Assembly: GCF_041261445.1 (NCBI RefSeq)
Contig: NZ_JBGCCU010000003.1
Span: 434,001-498,000, forward strand
Direction of reading: 5' to 3'
Source of the DNA: Catenulispora sp. EB89
GTDB lineage: Bacteria > Actinomycetota > Actinomycetes > Streptomycetales > Catenulisporaceae
Length of the DNA stretch: 64,000 nucleotides
A program made the translations under genes and the position numbers. Within the stretch, counting starts at the first letter, position 1. Every line of letters starts with the position of its first letter. Shown piece by piece: positions 1 through 61,373 of this stretch. The notes below the pieces were generated by a model. It searched no databases. It saw only the letters and a program-made list of their open reading frames with translations, and was not told where the DNA came from.

Positions 1-521
1 TGCCACGAGTCCTCCTTGGAATGGACAGGTTTCTGACCACGTATAAAGCGGTTGACTTCTTGTCGAGTACGGAACGTGCCCGAACCGGTGCCTTCCGTGC
101 GAAAGCGCACGCCAAGCCCCCCAGGATTCCGTACACCCACCTAGACGTCACGTGGTGCCCCAAGGTTGCTGGAGAAATCGGCCGATCATGGCTTCGTGAC
201 AGTTCCGGTACAAACATGCGAGGTTGGGAACTCTCAAAACAGGTTGAGTACCCCTGAACCGTCCGGTCTCAGGCATCTGACGACGGCCCTGGCGGCGCGA
301 CGCTTCCGGCGCAGCCCCGAGCCTCGCGGTAAGGCCCACCCCGGAACAAGTTCAAGATTCTTCGTCCCCTGGTGTGGACAGCGTTCGGTGAGAGCGCTTT
401 CATGAAGCTTGCGCGCGCAATGGTATAGACCTCGCGGATACCCGGAACCGGCCGTGACTCACACGGCCGGCACCGAACGGGTCCGCGAGTCCTCGTGGTG
501 CGTCAACCCAGGAGAACCCCC
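1..521. other. intergenic region upstream of GH16 gene
   Basis: There is no convincing gene in these 521 bases. Short open frames exist on both strands but lack ribosome sites and protein-like composition. The left part shows no structure I can name. The right part (389-434) contains a cluster of operator-like sequences listed separately, and AGGAG lies at 510-514 just before the ATG at 522. Confidence 0.6.
389..434 (+). promoter_or_regulatory. compound operator region: LacI-type box, palindrome and DasR-like dre site
   Basis: Three elements lie within 46 bp. TGAGAGCGCTTTCA (389-402) is a 14-bp dyad with one mismatched pair, close to the GAGAGCGCTCTC-type operators of actinobacterial LacI-family sugar regulators. 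TTGCGCGCGCAA (409-420) is a perfect palindrome. AATGGTATAGACCTCG (419-434) matches the DasR dre consensus core TGGTCTAGACCA at 10 of 12 positions. TATAGA at 424-429 could be a -10 element, so the dre-like site would cover the promoter. The motifs are seen directly; regulator assignment is inference. Confidence 0.5.
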
Positions 522-1859
522 ATGTCCGCAACCCCACAGCAATCACCGCCCCGCACCGCCCGCAAACGCTTCCGGCGCCTGGCCGCGGTGGCCGCACCGC
601 TCGCCGTCGCGCTTCTGGCGTGGGCCGCCGCGCCCGACGGCGTGGCCCAGGCCTCGGCGCCCCCACCGCCGTCGGGCTGGAACCAGGTCTTCCTCGACGA
701 CTTCAACGGCGGGTCCGGCAGCGGCATCGACGGTCAGTGGATGTACGACACCGGTCCGGGCTCGAACTTCGGCACCGGCGAGATCGAGACGATGACGAAC
801 TCGACCAGCAACGTGCACCTGGACGGCAACGGCAACCTCGACATCACCGCGCTGGGCGGCGGGAGCAACTGGACCTCGGGCCGGGTGCAGACCACCTCGG
901 CCAACGTCGGGGCGCCGGCCGGCGGCAAGCTGATGGTGACCGCCTCGATCCAGCAGCCGACCGGGGGCCTGGGGTACTGGCCCGCGTTCTGGATGCTCGG
1001 GCCGGGCCAGTGGCCGGAGAACGGCGAGATCGACATCATGGAGGACGTCAACGCCCTGTCGGAGGTCGCGGGCACCATCCACTGCGGCACCTACCCCGGC
1101 GGCGTCTGCAACGAGGGCAACGGCATCGGCAGCGGGCTGCGAGCCTGCGGCGGCTGCCAGAGCGGCTTCCACACCTACTCCATGGTGCTGGACCGCACGA
1201 ACACCTCGAACGAGTCGATCACGTTCTACCTCGACGGCAACCAGTACTTCTCGGTGAGCGAGGGACAGGTCGGCGCCTCGACCTGGCAGCAGGCCTACGA
1301 CCACAACCTGTCGATCATCCTCGACCTGGCGATGGGCGGCGGGTTCCCGAACGGGGTCTGCAACTGCACCACGCCGACCGGATCGACCGCCTCCGGCGGC
1401 ACGATGCAGGTCGACTACGTCGCGGCCTACACGACCAACGGCGGCGGCGGCCCGCCGCCGCCCCCGCCGGGCAGCGGCCCGATCTACTCCGGCGTCGGCT
1501 CCAACATCTGCCTGGACGACCAGAACTCGAGCACCGCGAACTACAACCCCGTGCAGATCTACACCTGCAACGGCACCGCGGCGCAGCAGTGGTCCGTGGT
1601 CCAGTCCGGGAGCACGCTGCATGTTCTGGGCAAGTGCCTGGACATCTATGCGGCCGGGACGACCAACGGGACGAAGGTCGATCTCTACGACTGCAACGGC
1701 ACCGGAGCGCAGGTCTTCGAGCCGCAGTCGAACGGATCGCTCTACAACCCGCAGTCCAACAAGTGTCTGGATGTCCCCGGTGCGACCACGCAATCGGGTA
1801 CGCAGGTCCAGATCTACGACTGCAACGGCACCAACGCTCAGAAGTGGACTCTTCCGTAG
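522..1859 (+). CDS. secreted glycoside hydrolase family 16 with C-terminal ricin-type CBM13
   Basis: The product has 445 residues. Residues 1-45 look like an Arg-rich signal peptide with a hydrophobic core (about 20-36). Residues about 52-303 form a GH16 beta-jelly-roll domain with the catalytic signature GEIDIME at 168-174 (E169 nucleophile, D171, E174 acid/base) and the preceding GYWPAFWMLG. A Gly/Pro linker (307-320) leads to a ricin B-type lectin domain (CBM13, about 320-445) with three repeats ending in QQW, AQVF and AQKW. The enzyme probably cleaves beta-1,3 or mixed beta-glucan outside the cell; the exact substrate cannot be read. ATG 522 is preferred over GTG 495 because AGGAG precedes it. 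It resembles the GH16 domain of the fusion protein at 53892-56774. Confidence 0.93.
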   Translation: MSATPQQSPPRTARKRFRRLAAVAAPLAVALLAWAAAPDGVAQASAPPPPSGWNQVFLDDFNGGSGSGIDGQWMYDTGPGSNFGTGEIETMTNSTSNVHLDGNGNLDITALGGGSNWTSGRVQTTSANVGAPAGGKLMVTASIQQPTGGLGYWPAFWMLGPGQWPENGEIDIMEDVNALSEVAGTIHCGTYPGGVCNEGNGIGSGLRACGGCQSGFHTYSMVLDRTNTSNESITFYLDGNQYFSVSEGQVGASTWQQAYDHNLSIILDLAMGGGFPNGVCNCTTPTGSTASGGTMQVDYVAAYTTNGGGGPPPPPPGSGPIYSGVGSNICLDDQNSSTANYNPVQIYTCNGTAAQQWSVVQSGSTLHVLGKCLDIYAAGTTNGTKVDLYDCNGTGAQVFEPQSNGSLYNPQSNKCLDVPGATTQSGTQVQIYDCNGTNAQKWTLP

Positions 1860-7831: not shown

Positions 7832-9964
7832 TCAGCCGGTGGACGAGCTCGTCGCCGTCGACCGGTGCGAGGCCCGGTCGTTGCTGGACTTGGTCCCGTC
7901 CGTCGGCCCGCCGCCGGTCGCCGCGTCCGTCCCGGTGCCGGTCCCGGTCGCCGTCCCGGACCCGCTCGGCGTCGTCGGCTGGTCGGCCGGCACCTGCCCG
8001 ATCTGCGTCCAGTCCGTCCCCAGCACCACCCGGGCGTCGGTGAGCGTCGTGTCGAACGGCGTGACCCGCACCGCGCTGTCCGGCAGCCCGAGCGCCAGCG
8101 CGACCTGCCGGCCCAGCGACATGGCGTCCTGGTTCGGCACCGTCACGTACGTGTTCGCCGTCTGCTGCGCCACGCCCTGGTCCACCGGCGTGTAGCCGCC
8201 GCCGACCAGCTTCGACTCGGCCATCGCGCGGCTGGAGACGGTGTCGGCGCGGCCGGTGGCGTCGGCCACCGAGACCCGCGTCAGCCCGCCGTTGTCCTTG
8301 GCCTTGGACGCGCCGTCCAGCAGGGCCTTGACCACGCCGGAGGCCTTGTCCAGGTCCATCACCCCGGTCCCGTCGGCCCGCAGCGGCAGCGACTGCTCGG
8401 AGAACCGGCTGCCCTGCTCCTCGGCGCCGAGCGCGGTCAGGATCGCGGCCAGCTTGTTGTTGGGCAGCGCCGGGTCCGGGACCGCGGCCAGGCTGTTCAG
8501 CACCGCCGTGGTGGTGCCCGCCTCGTGCGGGATCTTGGCCAGCATGCCCTGCACCACCTGGCCGAACCGGGCCAGCTGCTTGTCCGGCGACTCGCCCTTC
8601 GGGTGGTAGACCGCGTAGTAGGCGGCCTTGTCGCCGGTCATGTCCTGGGTGCCGGCCTGGAAGAGCGGCTTGCCGTTCTGGTCGAGCACCGCCGCGGCCG
8701 AGGCCGGGTCCACGTTGACCGTCACACCGATCAGGTTGTTCAGCAGCGCGGCGAACGTCAGCTCGTCCATCGACCAGACGCCGTCCACGTTCACGCCGAG
8801 CAGCGTGGTCAGCGCGTCCTTGCCGGCCGGCGCGGCGCTCGGCATCGAGCCGCCGAACGGCTGGCTGTCCAGCGCGGCGGACTCCACGCTCAGCTCGGCC
8901 GGGATCAGCAGCGCCGCGCCCCGGCCGGACGGGTCCGTCCGGCCGGCCACCTCGTTCTTGTCCGCGACCAGGACCACGTTGCCGACCGCGTTGCCGTTGC
9001 TGTCCTTGACCTGGAGCAGCACCGTGGTCTGGGTGGCCTTGACGCCGCCGCTGCCATTGAGCAGGAACCACGCCCCGCCGCCGACGACCAGCAGCACCAG
9101 GACCGCGGCCAGCGACATCAGCTGGATCCGGCGGCGCCGGGCCCGCTCGGCCCGGTCGTCGTTGCCGACGAAGTGGAGCCAGTTGGTCAGCTCGCCCTCG
9201 GAGTCGCCGGAGCCGCCGGTGTTGTCGGCGTCCGAGGCGGCCTCGGCCGCGGTCTCGGTGGCGACGACGCGCGCCGGGGCCGGCTCGGGGTCCGGCACGA
9301 AGCCCGCGACCGGCTCCGGCATCGTCGGGAACGCCGACACGCGCGCAGCGGCAGGCTGCTCGTAGGAGGGCTGCTGCGGCGGGAACGGCTGGTAGGAAGG
9401 CGCCTGCTGAGCCTGACCGTAGGGGTCGTACTCGTAAGAAGGCTGCTGCGGCGGCGCCTCGTGCGTGGGCTGCTGCTGCGCAGGCTGCGTGGGCTGGTAG
9501 AAGCCCGAAGAGTCGAGGTTCTGATACTGGGACGGCGCCTCGGGATAACCGGCGTTGCCGTATCCATACGGCTGCGCTTGGTAAGGATCCTGGGTCTGGT
9601 ACTGCTGATACCCGCCCTGTTGATACGGATCTTGCTGGTATTGATCCGTTTGGTACTGCTCCTGGTACTGCTGGCCCGGCGGCTGCTGATACGCGCCGCC
9701 CTGGTAGTAGGAGGGATCCGTGTAGCCGGGGTCCGTGTAACCAGAGTCTGTGTACCCGGAGTACTGGTCGTACGCCGCGGCCTCCTGCTCGGCCTGCTCC
9801 ACGTACTCCGCCGGCCGCTCGTACTCCCCCGATCCGCGCCGCCCGGTGCCGGGGCTCTGCGGGGCCAGATAAGGGTCCTCCGGGGGGCTGTCGGAGCGCC
9901 GCCGTCGGCCGCGCCCTCCCGAGCCCCCGCTCGTCGGCGGATCGTTCTCCCCCGGCCAGCTCAT
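7832..9964 (-). CDS. LCP/LytR-C-type membrane protein with Gln/Tyr-rich cytoplasmic region
   Basis: The 710-residue product has a long cytoplasmic N-terminus. Residues about 50-205 are Gln/Tyr/Pro-rich with repeats such as [10 protein letters not shown] and [16 protein letters not shown]. One transmembrane helix (about 278-303) is followed by an extracytoplasmic region resembling the LytR-CpsA-Psr fold ([36 protein letters not shown]) and a C-terminal LytR_C domain ([21 protein letters not shown]). The usual catalytic IPRDT-like motif reads IPAEL, so wall-polymer transferase activity is doubtful. The tail is Gly/Thr-rich. Its start overlaps the nadD stop by 4 nt. Confidence 0.8.
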
Positions 9965-10620
9965 GTCGTCCCTGTCCCAGGGGTGTCCCGGTAGAGCCCC
10001 CGCTTGTTGATGTACTGGACGATTCCGTCGGGGACCAGGTACCAGACCGGTTCCCCGTGCCGGACGCGTTCACGGCAGCCGGTGGAGGAGATCGCCATGG
10101 CCGGCACCTCCACCAGCGAGGCCTTCCCCGGCGGCAGCCCCGGGTCGGCCAGCCGGTGGCCCGGCCGGGTGACGCCGATGAAGTGGGCGAGGTCGAACAG
10201 TTCCTCGGGGTCGCGCCAGGAGAAGATCTGCTCCAGGGCGTCGGCGCCGGTGATGAAGAACAGGTCGGTGTCCGGGCCGCGCTCGGCCGACAGCTCCCGC
10301 AGGGTGTCGGTGGTGAAGGTGGGCCCGCCGCGGTCGATGTCCACCCGGCTCACGGAGAACCGGGGGTTCGAGGCGGTGGCGATCACCGTCATCAGATAGC
10401 GGTCCTCGGCCGGGGACACCCGGCGCTCGGACTTCTGCCAGGGTTCACCGGTCGGGACGAACACCACCTCGTCGAGCCCGAACAGGCTCGCGACCTCGCT
10501 GGCCGCGACCAGGTGGCCGTGGTGCACGGGGTCGAAGGTGCCGCCCATGACGCCCAGCCGCGTCCGGCGCCGTCGGGTCGCCCCGGCGGCCTGCGGCTCA
10601 GGCGTCGGATGAGAGGTCAT
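9961..10620 (-). CDS. nadD: nicotinate-nucleotide adenylyltransferase
   Basis: The 219-residue product contains the nucleotidyltransferase signature [15 protein letters not shown] (residues 23-37) and a C-terminal [10 protein letters not shown] segment matching the ISST.IR motif of NadD. It converts nicotinate mononucleotide and ATP to deamido-NAD in NAD synthesis. About 20 basic, Pro-rich residues precede the domain. It is followed by the LCP gene with a 4-nt overlap and then rsfS, the usual order. Confidence 0.96.
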
Positions 10621-10658
10621 GGCGCGTCACCCTACCCGGTCGGACCGGGGTGGTGGGA

Positions 10659-10829
10659 CTAGCGGTCCTTGTTGAGGCGCGTGGTGACGAACAGCAGGAT
10701 CAGCAGGACGCCGAGGACGATCGCGCCGTTCAGCGGCGGGTTGATGCCGTTGTGCGTCGGCTCGGGCGCCGTCGTGCCCTCGGCGAGGAGGGCGTGCGCG
10801 GCCTGCGTGGCGGTGGAGAATGCGGACAT
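10659..10829 (-). CDS. small single-pass membrane protein
   Basis: The 56-residue product begins MSAFSTATQAAHALLAEG and has one hydrophobic helix, GAIVLGVLLILLFVTTRL, ending in a basic tail (NKDR). Small proteins with this layout are found upstream of nadD in other actinobacteria from memory. Function is unknown. ATG 10829 is preferred to the upstream ATG 10841. Confidence 0.7.
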   Translation of the reverse strand: MSAFSTATQAAHALLAEGTTAPEPTHNGINPPLNGAIVLGVLLILLFVTTRLNKDR

Positions 10830-10931
10830 GGACGTCAGCATAGGGGGTCAGCCGTACCGGAATCCCGGCAGGGTGCCCGCTGCGGCGGGCACCGTCAGCC
10901 GCGCGGGCTACTCCCCCGGCCGGCGCCCCGG

Positions 10932-53891: not shown

Positions 53892-56774
53892 TCATCCTTC
53901 TCGGGTCGAGATCCGGAGGGAGGCCACGGTCATCGGGCGGCCGGGGACGGTGGCGGGGCCGGGGTGCGCGGCGGCGGGACCTGCGACGGAGCCGGGAAAA
54001 GTGCCGCCGACGGCCAGGTCGAGGATCACGAAGAAGCCGTGGTGGACGGCGGCATCCCAGGTCGCGGGGTCGACCGTGGTGGCGTCGAGGTGGAAGACCT
54101 CCGTGCCGTCGACGGACCAGCGGATCTGTTCGGGGGTGCGGGAGCGGTCGATCTCGACGGCGTATTGGTGTTGGCCGGAGGTGCAGGCGGGGCAGGGGCG
54201 TTCGCCGGAGGTGAGACCAGTGGGTTCGTGGCAGGGGTTGGCTGGTTGTGCGCCTGTTGGCTGCGTGCCGCAATGCAGTGTGGACCAGGTGGAGGCGCGG
54301 CCGTTCAGCGCTTCGAGGACGTCGATCTCGCCTCCGGTCGGCCAGGGACCGGTGCCGTCGCGGACCCCGCTGCCGAGGGCCCAGAACGCTGGCCAGTAGC
54401 CGGCTCCGTCGGCGGTGCTGACAGCCGGAAGCGTGATCTCGGCGCTGATGCGGAGCACGCCACCGGGTGGTGCGGCGAAGTCGTCGCGGCGGGTCTCGAC
54501 GCGGCCGGAGGTCCAGGTGCCGTCGGCGGCGCGGAGTGGGGTGAGCTGGAGCGCGCCGTGGCCGTCGAGATGGACGTTGGCGGAATCGGCGCTCATGGCT
54601 TCCACCTCGCCGGTGCCCCAGTTCGAGGCCGGGCAGCCGGGGTAGCAGTGTCCTGTGTCGATCAGCCAGTCTTGGGTCGGCGGCGAGGACCCTGCCGGGC
54701 CTTGGAAATCGGCGGCGAACACGGTGTGCCAGGGGCTTGCGAACGGCAGTTGGGCCGCGAGGCGCGATGCCAGGAGGTAGGCGGCGGCATCGGTCAGGTG
54801 GGAGTCGTCGCGGTATAGAAGGACACCGTCGAGAACTGCCGGGCATTCGGTGCCGGGGCACAGCAGGGGGCTGAAGTCGATCGGGGTGACGCGCGGGTCT
54901 TCGGTGAGTGGGTCGGGCGCCAGGGCGCTGTTCTTACTGAATGCGCAGTCGTTCCAGTGGTGTTGGGAGCCGGAGACGCAGACCGGGATGTCGGTGTCGG
55001 GCTTCGGAGTGTCGTGGAGGGCGGCGATCGGGACACCGAGGTCGGCCAGGGCCGTCAGTGGAGCGTTCCAGGCGGCTTTCGTCGCGATCGGCGGGGCGTA
55101 CCAGTCGAGCTCGGAGATGATGATCAGGCTCGGACGCGGTTCCTGTCGGAGCTGGTCCAGGACCGAGGCACGCCAGGTGTAGCACTCACGGTAGTCGCGG
55201 CCGAGGACGGGGCTGGTGACGGTGAGGTCGGCGAAGGGGCAGCCTTGTTTGACGCGTTCCTCGACGGCCAGGTGCCGGTCTGCGGCGATGCGGCTGATCG
55301 CCGAGAACCATTGCCCGGCGTGGGAATCGCCGATGAGGACGATGCGGTCGGCGGGGAGGTCGGCCGGGGCCGGCGGATTCGGGTCGCGGACGAGGCCGGT
55401 CGTGGTGGTTGCTCCCTGGGACATCGGCGCCGGAACGAACAGACATGGCTGGCTGACGGCCACGGCCGGAGCTACTTCGCAGTCGCCGTCGGGCGGGAAG
55501 TCTTTCCGCGCTTGGGCTGGCGTCGGCATGGTGGGACCGCCGGTGCGGTACGTCGCGGGGGACGCGAGGAGGTGCGTTCCGCTGGTCGCGGCGGCCGGCA
55601 GGGCTTTTATGTCGAAACCCTGCGCGTCACCGAGAGTGTGGGCCGCCCCGGTGCCGACCGCGAGCCCGGCGGCCAGCGGGAGCATCACGGCGGTCGCGCC
55701 GATGGCCAGGCCGCGGCGTGGGGCTTCGGTGATGAGCCGGGAGAAGCGGAGCGGCTGCTCGACCAGGCGCATGGTGGCGTAGGCGGGAATCGCGGAGGCG
55801 GCAGCCAAGGCTGCGGCCAGTTCCCACGGGAGGTCGCCCCAACGTGCTTGGGCCAGGACCAGGATCGGCCAGTGCCATAGGTAGAGCGCGAAGGAGAGGC
55901 GGCCGATCGCGCGCGGGGCTTTGGCCGCGAGGAACGCCGGCGTTGAGAACCTCGGGTACTCCCCCGCTCCAGCAAGCAGTATGAGCACAGTCCCGACAAC
56001 GGGCAGCAACGCCGCGGTTCCGGGATAAGGCGTCTTCGCGCCGAAACTGACAGTCGCGGCAACAACAAGCGCCATACCCGCGCCCCCTATAGCGCTGCGC
56101 GCTCTTCCGTAGCCCAGCGTTCTGCCATCGATGGCCACCGCGAGAATCGCCCCCGCACCGAACTCCCAGGCGCGCGACGGCGAGCCCATGTAGGCGAGCG
56201 GCGCGGACGTGCGCGTCCAGTGCAGCGACAGCGCGAACGAGGCCGCCGACAGGACCAGGATCTCGCCGAGCACGAACCCCCGCACCGACCTGCTCCGCTT
56301 CCGCGCAGCCAGCATCGCCACCAGGACCAGCGGCGCCCACACGACGTAGAACTGCTCCTCGACCCCGAGCGACCAGTAGTGCAGCAGCGGACTCGGCGCC
56401 CGCGAGGCGGCCAAGTAGTTGGTCTGGTCCGCGACGAAGCGCCAGTTGCCCCCGTTGAGCGCCGCGGTGAGGAGGTCGAACGCGACGTCCTGCTGCCGCA
56501 ACGGCGGCAACCACAGCCACGTAGCCACCGCTGTGAACAGCAACACCACGCACGCCGCCGGCAGAATGCGCCGCGCACGACGCGCATAGAACTCAACGAG
56601 CGAGAACTCCCGGCGCCGCATCACCTGCCCGGTAATGAGGAACCCGGAGACGACGAAGAACACATCGACGCCGACATAGCCACCGGCCATCCCCGGCACC
56701 GCAGCATGGAAGCCAAGCACCGCCATCACCGCGACAGCCCGCAGGCCCTCAATATCGGGCCGAAACCCGCGCAT
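53892..56774 (-). CDS. trifunctional fusion: acyltransferase-3, SGNH hydrolase and GH16 glycanase
   Basis: The 960-residue product has three parts. Residues 1-385 are an acyltransferase-3 (OafA-like) domain with about 10-11 helices, the R12-x10-H23 motif in EGLRAVAVMAVLGFHA, GVDVFFVVSGFLI and YLWHWPI. Residues about 465-675 are an SGNH domain with GDSHAGQW (nucleophile S484) and YRDDSHLT (D656/D657, H659). Residues about 682-955 are a GH16 domain with GEIDVLE at 815-821 (E816, D818, E821). The SGNH and GH16 parts face outside. AT3-SGNH fusions are known; the added GH16 is not one I know. ATG 56774 has GAGG upstream. It probably acylates, edits and cuts the glycan made by the GT2 encoded two genes upstream. 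Confidence 0.9.
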   Translation of the reverse strand: MRGFRPDIEGLRAVAVMAVLGFHAAVPGMAGGYVGVDVFFVVSGFLITGQVMRRREFSLVEFYARRARRILPAACVVLLFTAVATWLWLPPLRQQDVAFDLLTAALNGGNWRFVADQTNYLAASRAPSPLLHYWSLGVEEQFYVVWAPLVLVAMLAARKRSRSVRGFVLGEILVLSAASFALSLHWTRTSAPLAYMGSPSRAWEFGAGAILAVAIDGRTLGYGRARSAIGGAGMALVVAATVSFGAKTPYPGTAALLPVVGTVLILLAGAGEYPRFSTPAFLAAKAPRAIGRLSFALYLWHWPILVLAQARWGDLPWELAAALAAASAIPAYATMRLVEQPLRFSRLITEAPRRGLAIGATAVMLPLAAGLAVGTGAAHTLGDAQGFDIKALPAAATSGTHLLASPATYRTGGPTMPTPAQARKDFPPDGDCEVAPAVAVSQPCLFVPAPMSQGATTTTGLVRDPNPPAPADLPADRIVLIGDSHAGQWFSAISRIAADRHLAVEERVKQGCPFADLTVTSPVLGRDYRECYTWRASVLDQLRQEPRPSLIIISELDWYAPPIATKAAWNAPLTALADLGVPIAALHDTPKPDTDIPVCVSGSQHHWNDCAFSKNSALAPDPLTEDPRVTPIDFSPLLCPGTECPAVLDGVLLYRDDSHLTDAAAYLLASRLAAQLPFASPWHTVFAADFQGPAGSSPPTQDWLIDTGHCYPGCPASNWGTGEVEAMSADSANVHLDGHGALQLTPLRAADGTWTSGRVETRRDDFAAPPGGVLRISAEITLPAVSTADGAGYWPAFWALGSGVRDGTGPWPTGGEIDVLEALNGRASTWSTLHCGTQPTGAQPANPCHEPTGLTSGERPCPACTSGQHQYAVEIDRSRTPEQIRWSVDGTEVFHLDATTVDPATWDAAVHHGFFVILDLAVGGTFPGSVAGPAAAHPGPATVPGRPMTVASLRISTREG

Positions 56775-56784
56775 GGCCACCGCC

Positions 56785-57453
56785 TCAGCCCAGCCAAGGC
56801 AGCATCGGCCGGAAGACACCGGTCGCCACCGCGCCGCCAAGGAGGAGCGCGATGGTGATGGCCACCGCCTCGGGCCACCGCAGGCGATGGTCAGGAGCGC
56901 CACGCGGTGGTGCAGCGGTAGGTGCGGCGCTCGGACGCTCGGCGGGATGCAAGGTAGCCAGCTGCTCGGCGGCATCGGCGGCTGGCGACTCGGCAGCATG
57001 CGCGACATTCGGCCGCGCGTCAGTCCGAACCCCAGCAGCGTGCGCGGCACCCGGGGGCTCGGCAACACGCGCAGCAGCTGGCAGCTCGCAAATAGGCGCG
57101 ACGCCCAGGGACTCAGCATCAACCGCATTGCTCAGCGCCTCACCGGTCTGAAGCTCGGCAGCGTGCGCGGCACCCAGGGGCTCATCAACTCGCGCTGCAC
57201 CTTGTGGCTCGCCAGCCGGCGCGGCGCCCTGAGGCTCAGCACCAACCGCACGGCCAAGCGGCTCGCCGGTGGGCACGCCGCTCGGCGGCTCGGCATACTC
57301 GGCGCTCAACGGCTCCCCATCAGCCATAACGCTCGGCACCAGCCGCTCGCCAGGCCGTCGCAACTCACCGGCCACCGCCGCGCCAGCCTTTTCGGTCGCC
57401 TCCCCACCGCCGCGCCCGCCAGCTCCGAGTCCGCATCGAATCCTGTCCGTCAT
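56785..57453 (-). CDS. low-complexity protein with C-terminal membrane helix
   Basis: The 222-residue product is unrecognised. Residues about 40-185 are Ala/Glu/Pro-rich with imperfect 10-14-residue repeats around EPxGAAxAxEPQGAA. Residues 196-215 form one membrane helix (AVAITIALLLGGAVATGVF) and the protein ends PMLPWLG. No signal peptide is seen, so the repeats are probably cytoplasmic. The gene overlaps the GT2 stop by 4 nt and lies 10 nt before the fusion gene, so it is a true operon member. A tether or spacer coupling synthase and modifier is one guess. Confidence 0.72.
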   Translation of the reverse strand: MTDRIRCGLGAGGRGGGEATEKAGAAVAGELRRPGERLVPSVMADGEPLSAEYAEPPSGVPTGEPLGRAVGAEPQGAAPAGEPQGAARVDEPLGAAHAAELQTGEALSNAVDAESLGVAPICELPAAARVAEPPGAAHAAGVRTDARPNVAHAAESPAADAAEQLATLHPAERPSAAPTAAPPRGAPDHRLRWPEAVAITIALLLGGAVATGVFRPMLPWLG

Positions 57454-59018
57454 ACCGTCCTCAACTCCCTGATCAGCGGCACCGTCAGATATCCCGTCAC
57501 CGCCACATAAGCCGCGACCCCCCACATCCGCCCGACCCCGAACCGCGCCACATCCGCGGCCAGCGCCGCCACCGCCGCGCCGGTCGTCGTGCCGAGCCAC
57601 AGCGTCGCGAGGCGCGCGATGCTGCGCGCCAGCCGCGAGCGGCCGCCGCCGGCGCCGGTCGGGACCCAGTCGGCGGCGCGGCCGCGCAGCGTGTGCGCCA
57701 GTGCCGCCGCCGCGGCGAAGGCGACCAGGTAGTTCGCGCGGATCACCTCGATGCGCCAGCGGGTGCGCGACACCGCCGGCAGCAGCACGAACCACACCCA
57801 CAGCGGCGCCAGCAGCGGCAGCACGTGCCAAGGGCGGATCTGCTGCGGGTAGCCGGCGAGCATGATCAGGGGCGGGATCGGCGCCGCGAACACGTTGACC
57901 GCCATCACCACGTAGCCGATGACGCCGTTGTAGAAGCACAGCCGCGTCCGCCAGCCCGCCCCCACGCGCTTCAGATCGCGCCCGGTCAGCAGGTGCAGGT
58001 TGCCCATCGCCCAGCGGTACTGCTGGTTCACGAACGCCGGCAGGCTCTCCGGCGAGATCCCCTTCGCCACCAACACCGGCACGTACTGCGTCCGGAATCC
58101 GCGCCCCAGCATCTCCAGGCCCGTATACATGTCCTCGGAGTGGTCCAGCTTCGCGAACCCGCCGATCGCGTCCAGCGCCGCACGCCGGTACACCGCGTTG
58201 CTACCGCAACAGATCGCGGCGTCCGCAGCGTCGCGCGACGGCTGCACCCACCGGAAGAACCACTCCTGCGCAGCTCCAGCAGCACGCTGTAGCCACGACA
58301 TACTCTCGTCGGTGTCGAAGAACTGCGGACTCTGCACGATCCCGACCCCCGGGTCCGCCAAATACGGCACCAGATGGTCCAGGAAATCAGCCCGCGGACA
58401 GAAGTCGGCGTCAAGGATCGCGACCACCTCACCAGTCGCGATCGTCAGCGCATGGTTCAGGTTCCCGGCCTTCTTCAGACGGCCACGGTCCGGTCGCACC
58501 ACGTACCGGAACCCGAACTCGCGCGCCAACTCCTCCACATCGGGACTGGCCGCGTCGTCCAGGACGTACACCGCCAATGCCCCGCGCCACTCCATGCGCG
58601 CGACGTAGAGGTAAGCGTTGCGCAGAACGTCCAGAGGCTCCCCGCATGTCGGCAGGAACAAGTCAACGCTAGGCGGCTCCGCAGGACTCCACGCCCGCAC
58701 CAGAACCTCGTGCCCGGCACGGGTCAGCCGCCGCTGCCGCTGCCCGTCCACCAGAGAGAAACCGAGCGCCACCAGGTTCAGCAGCAATACCGCGAGGAAC
58801 ACCCACAACGCCGGAGTGCGCAGCGAGAACAAGAAGAGCGTGATGGCCGTGAATACGAAAGACAGTGCCGAAAACAGCAGCACCCACCGCCGCTGCGGAC
58901 CGAAGTACCAGTACAGCTCGTCGTCGTCCGGCGGTGCGGGCAAATGGGAGGTCGCCTGAGAGGCTGGGGATGTCGATGGAGAAGTGGTCCGAGATGTCAG
59001 TGTTGCGTTCGGCGCCAT
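57450..59018 (-). CDS. cellulose synthase-like family 2 glycosyltransferase
   Basis: From ATG 59018 the product has 522 residues. Two membrane helices (about 45-66 and 70-90) precede a GT-A domain with D154/D155, DAD at 203-205, SED at 294-296 (catalytic base) and QQYRW at 332-336, the processive synthase signature. At least four more helices follow. No PilZ c-di-GMP domain is present. It probably makes and exports a beta-glycan; glucose versus GlcNAc cannot be decided. GGGGGA precedes the start, and a TCGAGA-17-TAGCCT promoter with a dre site in its spacer lies upstream. GTG 59057 is an alternative start. Confidence 0.9.
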   Translation of the reverse strand: MAPNATLTSRTTSPSTSPASQATSHLPAPPDDDELYWYFGPQRRWVLLFSALSFVFTAITLFLFSLRTPALWVFLAVLLLNLVALGFSLVDGQRQRRLTRAGHEVLVRAWSPAEPPSVDLFLPTCGEPLDVLRNAYLYVARMEWRGALAVYVLDDAASPDVEELAREFGFRYVVRPDRGRLKKAGNLNHALTIATGEVVAILDADFCPRADFLDHLVPYLADPGVGIVQSPQFFDTDESMSWLQRAAGAAQEWFFRWVQPSRDAADAAICCGSNAVYRRAALDAIGGFAKLDHSEDMYTGLEMLGRGFRTQYVPVLVAKGISPESLPAFVNQQYRWAMGNLHLLTGRDLKRVGAGWRTRLCFYNGVIGYVVMAVNVFAAPIPPLIMLAGYPQQIRPWHVLPLLAPLWVWFVLLPAVSRTRWRIEVIRANYLVAFAAAAALAHTLRGRAADWVPTGAGGGRSRLARSIARLATLWLGTTTGAAVAALAADVARFGVGRMWGVAAYVAVTGYLTVPLIRELRTV

Positions 59019-59059
59019 AGGCCGACGTTCCCCCTGTGAATCTGTGCTTTGACTCACCC

Positions 59060-59088
59060 AGGCTATTTCACTGGTCTAGACCTCTCGA
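59060..59088 (-). promoter_or_regulatory. promoter with DasR-like dre site for the exopolysaccharide operon
   Basis: ACTGGTCTAGACCTCT (59070-59085) matches the DasR consensus ACTGGTCTAGACCACT at 15 of 16 positions. On the minus strand it lies mostly between TCGAGA (59088-59083, -35 candidate) and TAGCCT (59065-59060, -10 candidate), spaced by 17 bp. Binding would block the promoter. The site is also about 65-80 bp upstream of the divergent DUF2625 gene. Confidence 0.7.
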
Positions 59089-59149
59089 TGTCCGTCCGAT
59101 GAACGATCTCTGAACCGTCTCGGGGTCGGCAACGCCGGGCAGATCTGCC

Positions 59150-59881
59150 ATGATCGGACGGATGCGAGAACTCACCGAGCTGATCGAGGTCGAGGATCCG
59201 GCATGGCCGGAGCTCCAAGCGTTGTTCGCGAACTCCCCGATGCCGCTGACCGTCTTCGCCCCCGACCCCCACGAGAGCACCCGCGGGCTCCACCAACTCC
59301 AGGTCACGGCGCGCTCGATGCTCGGCGGCCTGACCCTGAACTGCGGCGGCGTGCTGGTCGACGACGGCTGGGTCCGGGTGTACGGCGGCGGACCGGGCCA
59401 CGACGGCGGCCTGCCGAGCCTGGGCCAGGTCAACGGATTCCCCGAGACGTTCGACCCCGCGTGGCAGGCGCCGGCCGGGCTGGTCGTCGCGCACGACGTG
59501 CTCGGCGGCGTGTTCGCGCTGAACGGCATGGACCCGGCCGCCTCGGGACGGCCCGGGCAGCCGGGGCAGATGACGTACTTCGCACCGGACACGCTGGCCT
59601 GGGAGGCGTTGGAGATCGGCCACTCGGCGTGGCTCGCGTGGCTGCTGTCCGAGCGGCTCGAAGGGTTCTACAACGCGCTGCGCTGGGAGGGATGGCGCGA
59701 GGAGACCGCCGCGGTGGGGCCGACGCAGGCTATCAGCGTGTACCCGTTCCTCTGGAGCAAGCCGACGGATGACGCCACGACCAGTCGGCGCACGGTGCCG
59801 ATGGCCGGCGTGCTGGGGATAGCCGCGGACTTCGCGGAGCAGATCGGTGTCGGGGACCCCGGGTTCCTCGGACTCGTCTGA
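59150..59881 (+). CDS. DUF2625 family protein
   Basis: The 243-residue product matches DUF2625: LHQLQVTARSMLGGLTLNCGGVLVDDGWVRVYGGG, GLPSLGQVNGFPE, VAHDVLGGVFALNGM, YFAPDTLAWEALEIGHSAWLAWLLS and FYNALRWEGWREE. These proteins have no known activity and may be immunity-like or housekeeping proteins. It is divergent from the polysaccharide operon. ATG 59162 (MRELTEL) is an alternative start. Confidence 0.88.
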   Translation: MIGRMRELTELIEVEDPAWPELQALFANSPMPLTVFAPDPHESTRGLHQLQVTARSMLGGLTLNCGGVLVDDGWVRVYGGGPGHDGGLPSLGQVNGFPETFDPAWQAPAGLVVAHDVLGGVFALNGMDPAASGRPGQPGQMTYFAPDTLAWEALEIGHSAWLAWLLSERLEGFYNALRWEGWREETAAVGPTQAISVYPFLWSKPTDDATTSRRTVPMAGVLGIAADFAEQIGVGDPGFLGLV

Positions 59882-59913
59882 TCTGCTGGTGATCCGCGGC
59901 TGCCGATGTCTGT

Positions 59914-59943
59914 GATCAGTACATCTAGGATCAGTACATCTAG
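59914..59943. repeat. perfect 15-bp tandem duplication at ALDH gene end
   Basis: GATCAGTACATCTAG occurs twice in tandem (59914-59928 and 59929-59943). The second copy holds the stop codon of the aldehyde dehydrogenase on the minus strand. Confidence 0.9.
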
Positions 59944-61373
59944 GCGACCCGGAACTGCAGCGACTTCGTCTGCAGGTACTCCTCCAGCCCGAACCGGCCC
60001 AGCTCACGGCCGACACCGGAACCCTTGTAGCCGCCGAAGGGCGCCGCGAGGTTGAACCGGCCGCCGTTGATGTCGACCTGGCCGGTGTCCATCCGCCGGG
60101 CGAAGGCCACGGCCTCGTGGTCGTCGGCCGCCCACACCGCGCCGGCCAGGCCGTACTCGGTGGCGTTGGCGATGCGCAGCGCGTCCTCGGCGTCGTGGAA
60201 CGACATCAGGGAGATGACCGGGCCGAAGATCTCCTCGCGGGCCACGGCCATGTCGGTGGTGACGTCGGCCAGCACCGTCGGGCGCACGTAGAAGCCGTGC
60301 GGCAGATCGTCCGGGGCCTGCGCGCCGCCGACCACGACCCGCGCGCCCTCACCGACGGCGTCGTTCAGGTAGCCGCGGACCCGGTCCCGCTGCTTGGCGT
60401 TGACCACCGGGCCGACCCGGGTCTCCGGGCTGGTCGGGTCGCCGGGCACGAACTTCGCCGCGGCGGCCGCGGCGATGGTCACGGCCTCGGCGTACTGCTC
60501 TTCGGGAACCAGCAGGCGGGTCCAGGCCGAGCAGGTCTGGCCGGAGTTGTTGAAGACGTTGGCGACCGCGACGTTGACCGCCTTGGCCAGGTCCGCGCCG
60601 GGCAGCACCACGCACGCCGACTTGCCGCCGAGTTCCAGCGCCACCCGCTTGACGCCGCGCCCGGCGTGCTCGGCGACCTGCCGGCCGACCGCGGTGGAGC
60701 CGGTGAAGGAGACCATGTCGACGTCCGGATGCGCGGCCAGCGCCGCCCCGGCCGCCGCGCCGGTCCCGGTGACCAGGTTGAAGACACCGGGCGGGAAGCC
60801 GGCCTCATCGACCAGCCGGGCGAACAGGCGCGCGGTCAGCGGCGTGTCCTCGGCCGGCTTCAGCACCACGACGCACCCGGCCGCCAGCGCCGGCATCACC
60901 TTGGCGACGACCTGGTGCAGCGGGTAATTCCACGGCGTGATCGCGCCGACGACACCGGCCGGCTCGTGGTAGACGGTCGAGTTGCCGACCTGCTCCTCGA
61001 ACTCGTAGTCGGCCAGGATGCGCAGGTAGCTCTCGGCCACCCCCAACGGCAGCGCGGCCTGCACCGCGGTGGCGAAGCCGACCGGGCAGCCGAGCTCGGC
61101 GACCACGGTCTCGACGATCTCCGGCTGCGCCTCGGCGAGCTTGGCGACCAGGTGGCCCAGGAACTCCAGCCGGTAGTCCTTGTGGCTGGCGCCCCAGGCG
61201 CGCGCCGCGGACCGGGCCGCGGCCACGGCGGCGTCCACGTCGGCGGCACCGCCGGCGGGGATCGCGGCGATCACCTCTTCGGTGGCCGGGTTCAGCACGT
61301 CGACCGTCTCGGTGGACGCCGAGGGGATCCATTTGCCGCCGATGTACTGGTCGGTGAAAGTGAGCACGCTCAT
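59940..61373 (-). CDS. aldehyde dehydrogenase family protein
   Basis: The 477-residue product has the NAD(P)-dependent ALDH signatures: N149 in ITPWNYP, E247 in ALELGGKSA and the catalytic C281 in [13 protein letters not shown]. The C-terminus [28 protein letters not shown] is typical. It oxidises an unidentified aldehyde. It stands alone, with a 153-nt gap to the MmpL-type gene. Confidence 0.95.

What the first reader, a model, noticed from the sequence alone, without database searches (positions are those of the whole stretch)
53892..56774. Three enzymes in one membrane protein: AT3, SGNH and GH16
A single 960-codon frame carries an acyltransferase-3 domain (R12-x10-H23), an SGNH domain (S484, D656/D657, H659) and a GH16 glycanase domain (E816, D818, E821), all with intact catalytic residues. 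AT3-SGNH fusions such as peptidoglycan O-acetyltransferases are known; a glycan-cleaving GH16 fused to them is not an architecture I know. It implies that acyl transfer and chain cutting act at the same membrane site on the same polymer.
Basis: partly seen in the sequence, partly recalled or inferred. Interest (0 to 1): 0.88.

Follow-up and report, generated by a model that had tools for sequence, protein, structure and literature searches.

The report
Glucan acyltransferase fused to its cutter
A soil actinobacterium carries one membrane protein that appears both to decorate a newly made surface sugar polymer with acyl groups and to cut it, encoded next to the enzyme that probably makes the polymer; each enzyme kind is known, but I found no description of this three-in-one fusion.

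Summary
The minus strand at 53892-56774 encodes one 960-residue protein with AT3 acyltransferase, SGNH and GH16 domains. It is no frameshift artefact: the one-frame architecture recurs in the window's genus, Streptomyces and Kitasatospora. GH16 scores below Pfam's cut-off, so Pfam architecture searches would miss it, but it is 48% identical to the endo-1,3-beta-glucanase 3dgt (Z 35.9). A cellulose-synthase-type GT2 lies upstream in 16 of 16 further intact fused loci. In Streptomyces sp. NRRL B-3428, AT3-SGNH and GH16 are separate adjacent genes; in Actinotalea, GT2 and AT3-SGNH share one frame. Best explanation: a synthase-dependent beta-glucan system whose tethered acyltransferase and glucanase process the nascent chain, working like the separate Sinorhizobium ExoH/ExoK proteins but covalently joined. 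Polymer, acyl group and coupling are inferred. Intact in 10 of 99 genomes sampled from the order; in a sample of 396 from the phylum the only two full-length matches listed were in this order. New variant of a known kind.

The parts
53892..56774 (-). AT3-SGNH-GH16 fusion protein, 960 aa plus stop
55782..56756 (-). AT3 domain, residues 7-331; R12 at 56739-56741 and H23 at 56706-56708
   Evidence: Pfam PF01757 6.8e-32; motif positions
55632..55721 (-). further transmembrane helix, residues 352-381, which by analogy with AT3-SGNH proteins would put what follows outside the membrane
   Evidence: hydropathy; helix 352-381 in the AlphaFold2 model
54756..55352 (-). SGNH domain, residues 475-673; S484 at 55323-55325, D656-H659 at 54798-54809
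   Evidence: Pfam PF19040 1.3e-23; motif positions
53895..54746 (-). GH16 laminarinase-type domain, residues about 677-960; E816-I-D818-V-L-E821 at 54312-54329
   Evidence: PDB phmmer 2.7e-80 to 7eo3, 1.1e-77 to 3dgt; fold Z 35.9; below the Pfam GH16 cut-off
56785..57453 (-). 222-aa protein, Ala/Pro/Glu-rich with one C-terminal hydrophobic helix (RWPEAVAITIALLLGG...PMLPWLG); its ATG overlaps the GT2 stop (ATGA). In the Streptomyces and Kitasatospora fused loci looked at, the same segment is in frame with the GT2 as its C-terminus
   Evidence: no Pfam match
57450..59057 (-). GT2 processive synthase, cellulose-synthase type, 535 aa, with LDD, DAD, SED and QQYRW motifs
   Evidence: Pfam/NCBIfam, PDB sequences, motifs, model match to BcsA Z 27.7 over 456 residues

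Best explanation
This is the processing enzyme of a synthase-dependent surface beta-glucan system. The upstream cellulose-synthase-type GT2 makes and extrudes a beta-glucan (most likely with 1,3 or mixed 1,3/1,4 links). The AT3 domain passes an acyl group (acetyl or succinyl) across the membrane, the SGNH domain puts it on the emerging chain outside, and the tethered GH16 endo-glucanase cuts the chain, so that acylation pattern and chain length are set together at the exit site. Shown: the domains, catalytic residues, conservation, GT2 linkage, and split and alternative fusions. Inferred: topology (model helices, hydropathy, family precedent), polymer, acyl donor, and that acylation steers cutting.
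For: Three intact domains; the nine named residues invariant in 17 of 17 fused sequences, and 13 of 14 cysteines after the AT3 domain invariant with the other in 16 of 17, as expected for extracytoplasmic disulfides. GT2 directly upstream in 16 of 16 intact fused loci other than the window (13, 3). AT3-SGNH followed by a separate GH16 ORF with a lipoprotein-like signal in Streptomyces NRRL B-3428 (L024). GT2 and AT3-SGNH in one 1250-codon frame in Actinotalea (L070). Of 80 GenBank loci kept, 4 hold a separate GH26 gene and all 4 also hold a GT2, one of them only a weak match (L074); 13 loci have a strong GT2 match. In 4 of 4 more distant GT2 loci (three genomes) the GT2 sits beside a GH26 gene. 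GH16 has the ExDxxE motif and its closest solved relatives are 1,3-beta-glucanases. Precedent: unsuccinylated succinoglycan of exoH mutants is refractory to ExoK and ExsH (PMC4916376, abstract and passages).
Against: No activity data. GH16 is absent in G458 and in Kitasatospora A2-31 while GT2 and AT3-SGNH are present, so the system can do without it. G049 keeps SGNH-GH16 with neither AT3 nor GT2 found in 13 kb, and G009 has a broken locus. In the AT3-SGNH tree the Actinotalea protein (L070) falls among AT3-SGNH proteins without a GT2, not with the other GT2-linked ones, so that pairing may be independent; the fused group itself has only 88/69 support. The GT2 fold does not tell the linkage made: best matches are cellulose synthases (beta-1,4), while the GH16 relatives cut beta-1,3. 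L024 and L070 are draft contigs, so a sequencing error at the joint cannot be excluded.
Confidence: 0.68

Rival explanations
1. The GH16 domain acts as a glucan transglycosylase that links the acylated glucan to other chains or to the cell wall, rather than cutting it.
For: The GH16 fold includes transglycosylases (Crh5 is in the fold list); a wall-anchoring role would also profit from tethering.
Against: The closest solved relatives by far are endo-1,3-beta-glucanases (48% identity, Z 35-36); Crh5 is distant (15-16% identity).
Confidence: 0.14
2. The domains are merely colocated: GH16 clears polymer stuck at the membrane, and acylation and cutting are not coupled.
For: A glycan-cleaving enzyme of another synthase system is reported to clear accumulated polymer (AlgL, PMC8829089, listing only: title and start of abstract). 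GH16 is absent in two genomes that keep the rest.
Against: A covalent fusion kept under purifying selection across genera suggests a benefit from closeness, but does not prove coupling.
Confidence: 0.1
3. The protein is an OatA-like peptidoglycan O-acetyltransferase whose GH16 is a foraging or housekeeping glucanase that happens to be fused.
For: AT3-SGNH is the architecture of OatA (PMC9558356, passages); stand-alone GH16 homologs are common in related genomes.
Against: Conserved adjacency to a GT2 synthase and in one relative a GT2 fusion; fused and split GH16 domains lie apart from the 12 stand-alone ones compared (98/95).
Confidence: 0.08

Closest known systems
ExoH (AT3 succinyltransferase) and ExoK (glycanase) of Sinorhizobium meliloti succinoglycan
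   Same: AT3 acylation and an endo-glycanase act on the same polymer, and the acyl group governs cutting (PMC4916376, abstract and passages). A reference title in PMC9558356 says exoK resembles beta-1,3-1,4-glucanases; that ExoK is GH16 is recalled.
   Different: Separate proteins; ExoH is a stand-alone AT3 without SGNH. Succinoglycan is built of octasaccharide subunits; that it uses a Wzy-type pathway rather than a GT2 synthase is recalled.
OafA/OafB and OatA, AT3-SGNH fused acyltransferases
   Same: AT3 with R-x10-H in the first helix (OafA R14 and H25, loss of signal when mutated, PMC7448272 passages), an 11th helix, an extracytoplasmic SGNH domain
   Different: No GH16 described in the passages read; substrates are O-antigen or peptidoglycan
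PgaB (deacetylase plus GH153) of the PNAG system
   Same: Acyl-modifying and cutting domains in one extracytoplasmic protein of a synthase operon; cutting needs the deacetylase to be active (PMC5933820 abstract)
   Different: Removes acetyl groups instead of adding them; different domains
Ruminococcus SGNH-family xylan esterases with appended glycoside hydrolase GH11 or CE15 domains (PMC9487903, passage)
   Same: An SGNH-superfamily domain and a glycan-cleaving domain in one protein
   Different: Xylan-degrading esterases; no AT3 membrane domain
Endo-1,3-beta-glucanases 3dgt (Streptomyces sioyaensis) and 7eo3
   Same: 48% identical GH16 domain, Z 35.9 and 35.1
   Different: Solved chains of 278-282 residues, not attached to a membrane acyltransferase
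CslA/GlxA cellulose synthase complex of Streptomyces (PMC11022532, listing only)
   Same: GT2-type glucan synthesis in filamentous actinobacteria
   Different: GlxA-type oxidase not seen among the ORFs scanned around this GT2; AT3-SGNH-GH16 partner not mentioned in the listing

Membership tests
AT3 acyltransferases (PF01757) | Pfam match over cut-off | tested here: met
   111.2 bits against 31
AT3 acyltransferases (PF01757) | R-x10-H in first helix | tested here: met
   R12/H23, 17 of 17; R14/H25 in OafA
AT3-SGNH fused acyltransferases | C-terminal SGNH domain with catalytic Ser, Asp, His after an 11th helix | tested here: met
   PF19040 84.4 bits against 27; residues invariant; helix 352-381 before it. 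Helix count and sidedness not measured
AT3-SGNH fused acyltransferases | transfers an acyl group to a glycan | not testable with these tools
   needs biochemistry
GH16 glycoside hydrolases | Pfam PF00722 match over cut-off | tested here: not met
   16 bits against 22; the separate homolog in L024 does pass, 38.1 bits. I read this as low sensitivity of the model, not a missing family feature
GH16 glycoside hydrolases | beta-sandwich fold and ExDx(x)E catalytic motif | tested here: met
   Z 35.9 to 3dgt; E816/D818/E821 17 of 17
GH16 endo-1,3-beta-glucanases | activity on beta-1,3-glucan | not testable with these tools
   48% identity to two solved 1,3-beta-glucanases only
Endo-1,3-1,4-beta-glycanase EglC (NF052454) | NCBIfam score over cut-off | tested here: not met
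   22.8 bits against 700
OatA peptidoglycan O-acetyltransferase | peptidoglycan as acceptor | not testable with these tools
   gene context argues against
SucT acyltransferase (NF058601) | NCBIfam score over cut-off | tested here: not met
   205 bits against 1275
UDP-forming cellulose synthase CelA/BcsA (for the GT2 neighbour) | TIGR03030 score over cut-off | tested here: not met
   177 bits against 699; the fold matches BcsA, Z 27.7, so it may work like one
ExoH/ExoK type acylation-gated cutting | acylation needed for cleavage of the same polymer | not testable with these tools
   reported for succinoglycan

The most novel reading that the evidence does not exclude
A dedicated actinobacterial machine (GT2 synthase, transmembrane helper segment, AT3-SGNH-GH16) makes a so far undescribed O-acylated beta-glucan and sets its length by acylation-gated cutting: the acyl mark placed by the SGNH domain decides where the GH16 domain of the same polypeptide cuts, so that one protein is both pen and scissors of a chain-length ruler.
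Probability: 0.3. Interest if true: 0.78.

Novelty: new variant of a known kind. Interest (0 to 1): 0.58.

Why it matters
Acylation and chain length are two main dials on the properties of bacterial surface polysaccharides. A single protein that carries both enzymes, next to a likely synthase, makes the question of how the two are coordinated directly testable with one gene and point mutants. It also shows that Pfam-based architecture tables can hide this class, because the GH16 domain scores under the model's cut-off in the window protein and is not listed at all at E 0.01 in the five fused relatives scanned. And it points to a surface glucan of Streptomyces, Kitasatospora and the window's genus for which I found no description.

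Tried and rejected
Frameshift or misassembly joining two genes: rejected, because the one-frame architecture recurs in independent genomes. Chance ORF: rejected. Plus-strand reading of the interval: stops. A 317-aa ORF at 59063-60016 (-) has no Pfam match at E 0.01 and lies opposite a DUF2625 ORF (59150-59881 +); treated as spurious. A PF00722 search of the window's own genome found nothing at E 0.001 although protein searches find GH16 homologs there, which shows how insensitive that model is here. Plasmid search: 10 records match at E 1e-40, 0 with one place covering 80% of the query. A larger conserved cluster: in 12 loci compared, no flanking gene was shared in place between genera; the only cross-genus match reported outside the unit is a 30-33% similarity between an ORF downstream in L021 (Streptomyces) and one upstream in three Kitasatospora loci (ORFs with hits in fewer than two other loci were not printed, flanks differ in length, and L133 was not masked). 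phmmer of residues 380-676 (the SGNH part) against PDB sequences gave nothing below E 0.5. The fold searches of the whole model were filled by GH16 rows, so AT3 and SGNH were not tested by fold. The 112 AT3-SGNH placements were chosen by similarity to the query and are not a random sample. Literature searches listed no paper that I recognised as describing AT3-SGNH-GH16; I judged by titles and starts of abstracts, and opened passages of only four of the AT3/SGNH papers; papers that hold GH16 and SGNH together were not opened; one search returned none; the library lacks most subscription journals. PMC12691653 (sporangium matrix, passages) was looked at and is not about this system.
Full report
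WHAT IS THERE. On the minus strand, 56774 down to 53892, one ATG-initiated frame encodes 960 residues. Pfam finds AT3 (7-331, 6.8e-32) and SGNH (475-673, 1.3e-23), but GH16 only at 16 bits against a curated cut-off of 22. phmmer against PDB sequences settles the third domain: 285 residues from the C-terminal part match 7eo3 (1,3-beta-glucanase, 2.7e-80) and 3dgt (Streptomyces sioyaensis endo-1,3-beta-glucanase, 1.1e-77) (alignment). An AlphaFold2 model from 28 sequences has mean pLDDT 86.7 and pTM 0.77. Its residues 673-960 superpose on 3dgt with Z 35.9, rmsd 1.9 over 271 residues at 48% identity.

IS IT REAL. The same three domains in one frame occur in G007 and G008 (same genus as the window) and in G016, G038, G041 and G051 of another family of the order. 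In 99 genomes sampled from the order, 14 have a match at E 1e-100 or better. Of these 14, 10 are intact single frames (G000, G007, G008, G016, G038, G041, G051, G444, G445, G463). G002 is divided between two contigs; G009 has GT2 residue 264 joined to SGNH residue 483 plus a frame change in GH16; G049 has SGNH-GH16 without AT3, and G458 has AT3-SGNH without GH16. In 396 genomes sampled from the phylum, some of them of this order, only 2 list a full-length match, both in this order (at most two candidates per genome were scored and the match list is cut). Across 17 fused sequences, window included, all nine residues are invariant, as are 13 of the 14 cysteines after the AT3 domain; the other is kept in 16 of 17. 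dN/dS per domain is 0.15-0.26 in three pairs. Of 112 AT3-SGNH placements collected by similarity to the query, 17 have more than 150 residues after SGNH: 16 are this family, and one (L084, Lysobacter) carries what looks by eye like a second, degenerate SGNH.

CONTEXT. Directly upstream lies a GT2 with LDD, DAD, SED and QQYRW motifs. Its AlphaFold2 model (pLDDT 81.3, pTM 0.82, 13 sequences) matches E. coli BcsA with Z 27.7, rmsd 4.5 over 456 residues, but it is far below the cellulose synthase equivalog cut-off (177 against 699 bits). Between the two lies a 222-aa protein ending in a hydrophobic helix, whose ATG overlaps the GT2 stop (ATGA). In the Streptomyces and Kitasatospora fused loci looked at, the equivalent helix is in frame with the GT2 as its C-terminus; in the same-genus loci L002 and L003, and in L024 and L052, it is in another frame; in L070 I saw none. 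I looked for the GT2 beside 16 intact fused loci other than the window and found it in all: L002, L003, L005-L008, L021-L023, L025, L026, L029, L062 and L125-L127. In 12 loci compared, no further gene was shared in place between genera (with the limits told under Tried and rejected). In a sample of 296 genomes from the phylum only 5 hold a GT2 this similar (E 1e-90).

ROSETTA-STONE EVIDENCE. In Streptomyces sp. NRRL B-3428 (L024) the same order exists with AT3-SGNH (7929-9959) and GH16 (within 9725-10909, another frame) as separate, adjacent genes; the GH16 is preceded by a lipoprotein-like signal, which would also hold it at the membrane. In Actinotalea (L070) GT2 and AT3-SGNH share one 1250-codon frame. 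So both joints of the proposed pathway are seen fused somewhere, though both records are drafts. GT2 with AT3-SGNH but no GH16 in the stretch held occurs in Kitasatospora A2-31, Kineosporia, Pseudofrankia, Gordonia and Actinotalea. A separate GH26 gene is found in 4 of the 80 loci (L024, L030, L070, L074), all with a GT2, though in L074 the GT2 match is weak; 13 of the 80 have a strong GT2 match. The 4 more distant GT2 places (three genomes) all sit beside GH26, with no AT3-SGNH match in 15-16 kb.

TREES (drawn with midpoint root). AT3-SGNH of the fused proteins groups with L027 (96/94) and then L024 (98/96), and further out with L028/L052 (98/92) and L030 (95/97), all GT2-linked; the fused group itself has only 88/69. 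Against a single origin of the GT2 link, L070 falls among AT3-SGNH proteins without a GT2. GH16 domains of fused, partial (L009) and split (L024) loci, 16 rows, stand apart from 12 stand-alone ones (98/95); L024 is a long branch and its place is unsure. A simple reading: GT2 plus AT3-SGNH came first, GH16 joined as a neighbour gene and was fused once in this order, then went missing in at least two lineages (L027, G458). This is inference.

HOW IT PROBABLY WORKS. The GT2 extrudes a glucan; AT3 passes an acyl group through the membrane, SGNH transfers it, and GH16 cuts (inference from family mechanisms; AT3-SGNH mechanism in PMC9558356 and PMC7448272, passages). GH16 of the ExDxxE type with closest relatives acting on beta-1,3-glucan, and GH26 as the alternative partner, point to a beta-1,3 or mixed 1,3/1,4 glucan; that GH26 includes mixed-linkage glucanases as well as mannanases is recalled, so a mannan is not excluded for the GH26 branch. 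The best precedent is succinoglycan: exoH mutants make unsuccinylated polymer that ExoK and ExsH cannot cleave (PMC4916376, abstract and passages). By analogy the acyl mark here may steer cutting, but nothing in the sequence proves it.

WHAT IS NEW. AT3-only, AT3-SGNH and AT3-racemase architectures are named in the passages I read (PMC7448272, PMC9558356). The passages seen of PMC12423673 and PMC9487903 name no GH16 fusion to AT3; PMC9487903 does mention SGNH-family xylan esterases with an appended GH11 domain. Literature searches listed none that I recognised. The kind (acylation plus cutting of one polymer) is known; the fusion, its conservation in the order and its GT2 partner look undescribed in what I could search.

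Noticed in passing
window 495-1859 (+): A second GH16 glucanase 53 kb away in the window, 45% identical to the fused GH16 domain; in the tree it groups with stand-alone GH16 enzymes.
   Followed up: partly
L084:8001-10886 (+): Lysobacter spongiae AT3-SGNH with about 295 further residues that look by eye like a degenerate second SGNH (GDATG in place of GDSH). No family scan was made of it.
   Followed up: partly
L070:6261-10010 (+): Actinotalea ferrariae: GT2 synthase and AT3-SGNH acyltransferase in one 1250-codon frame.
   Followed up: yes
L140, L141, L143, L144: A more distant branch of the GT2 family sits beside a GH26 gene (lipoprotein-like signal seen in L144) with no AT3-SGNH match nearby, in 4 of 4 loci looked at.
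   Followed up: partly
L010, L130 (genome G009): Decayed or misassembled copy of the locus: GT2 residue 264 directly followed by SGNH residue 483, and a frame change inside GH16.
   Followed up: partly
L131 (genome G458) and L027: GT2 plus AT3-SGNH present while GH16 is absent; in G458 a stop follows SGNH and a cold-shock-like ORF lies downstream.
   Followed up: partly
window 59150-59881 (+): DUF2625 protein (5.1e-76) on the opposite strand next to the GT2 gene.
   Followed up: no
L028:4241-5962 (+): Exosortase-like membrane protein (7.5e-21) directly upstream of the GT2 in Kineosporia.
   Followed up: no
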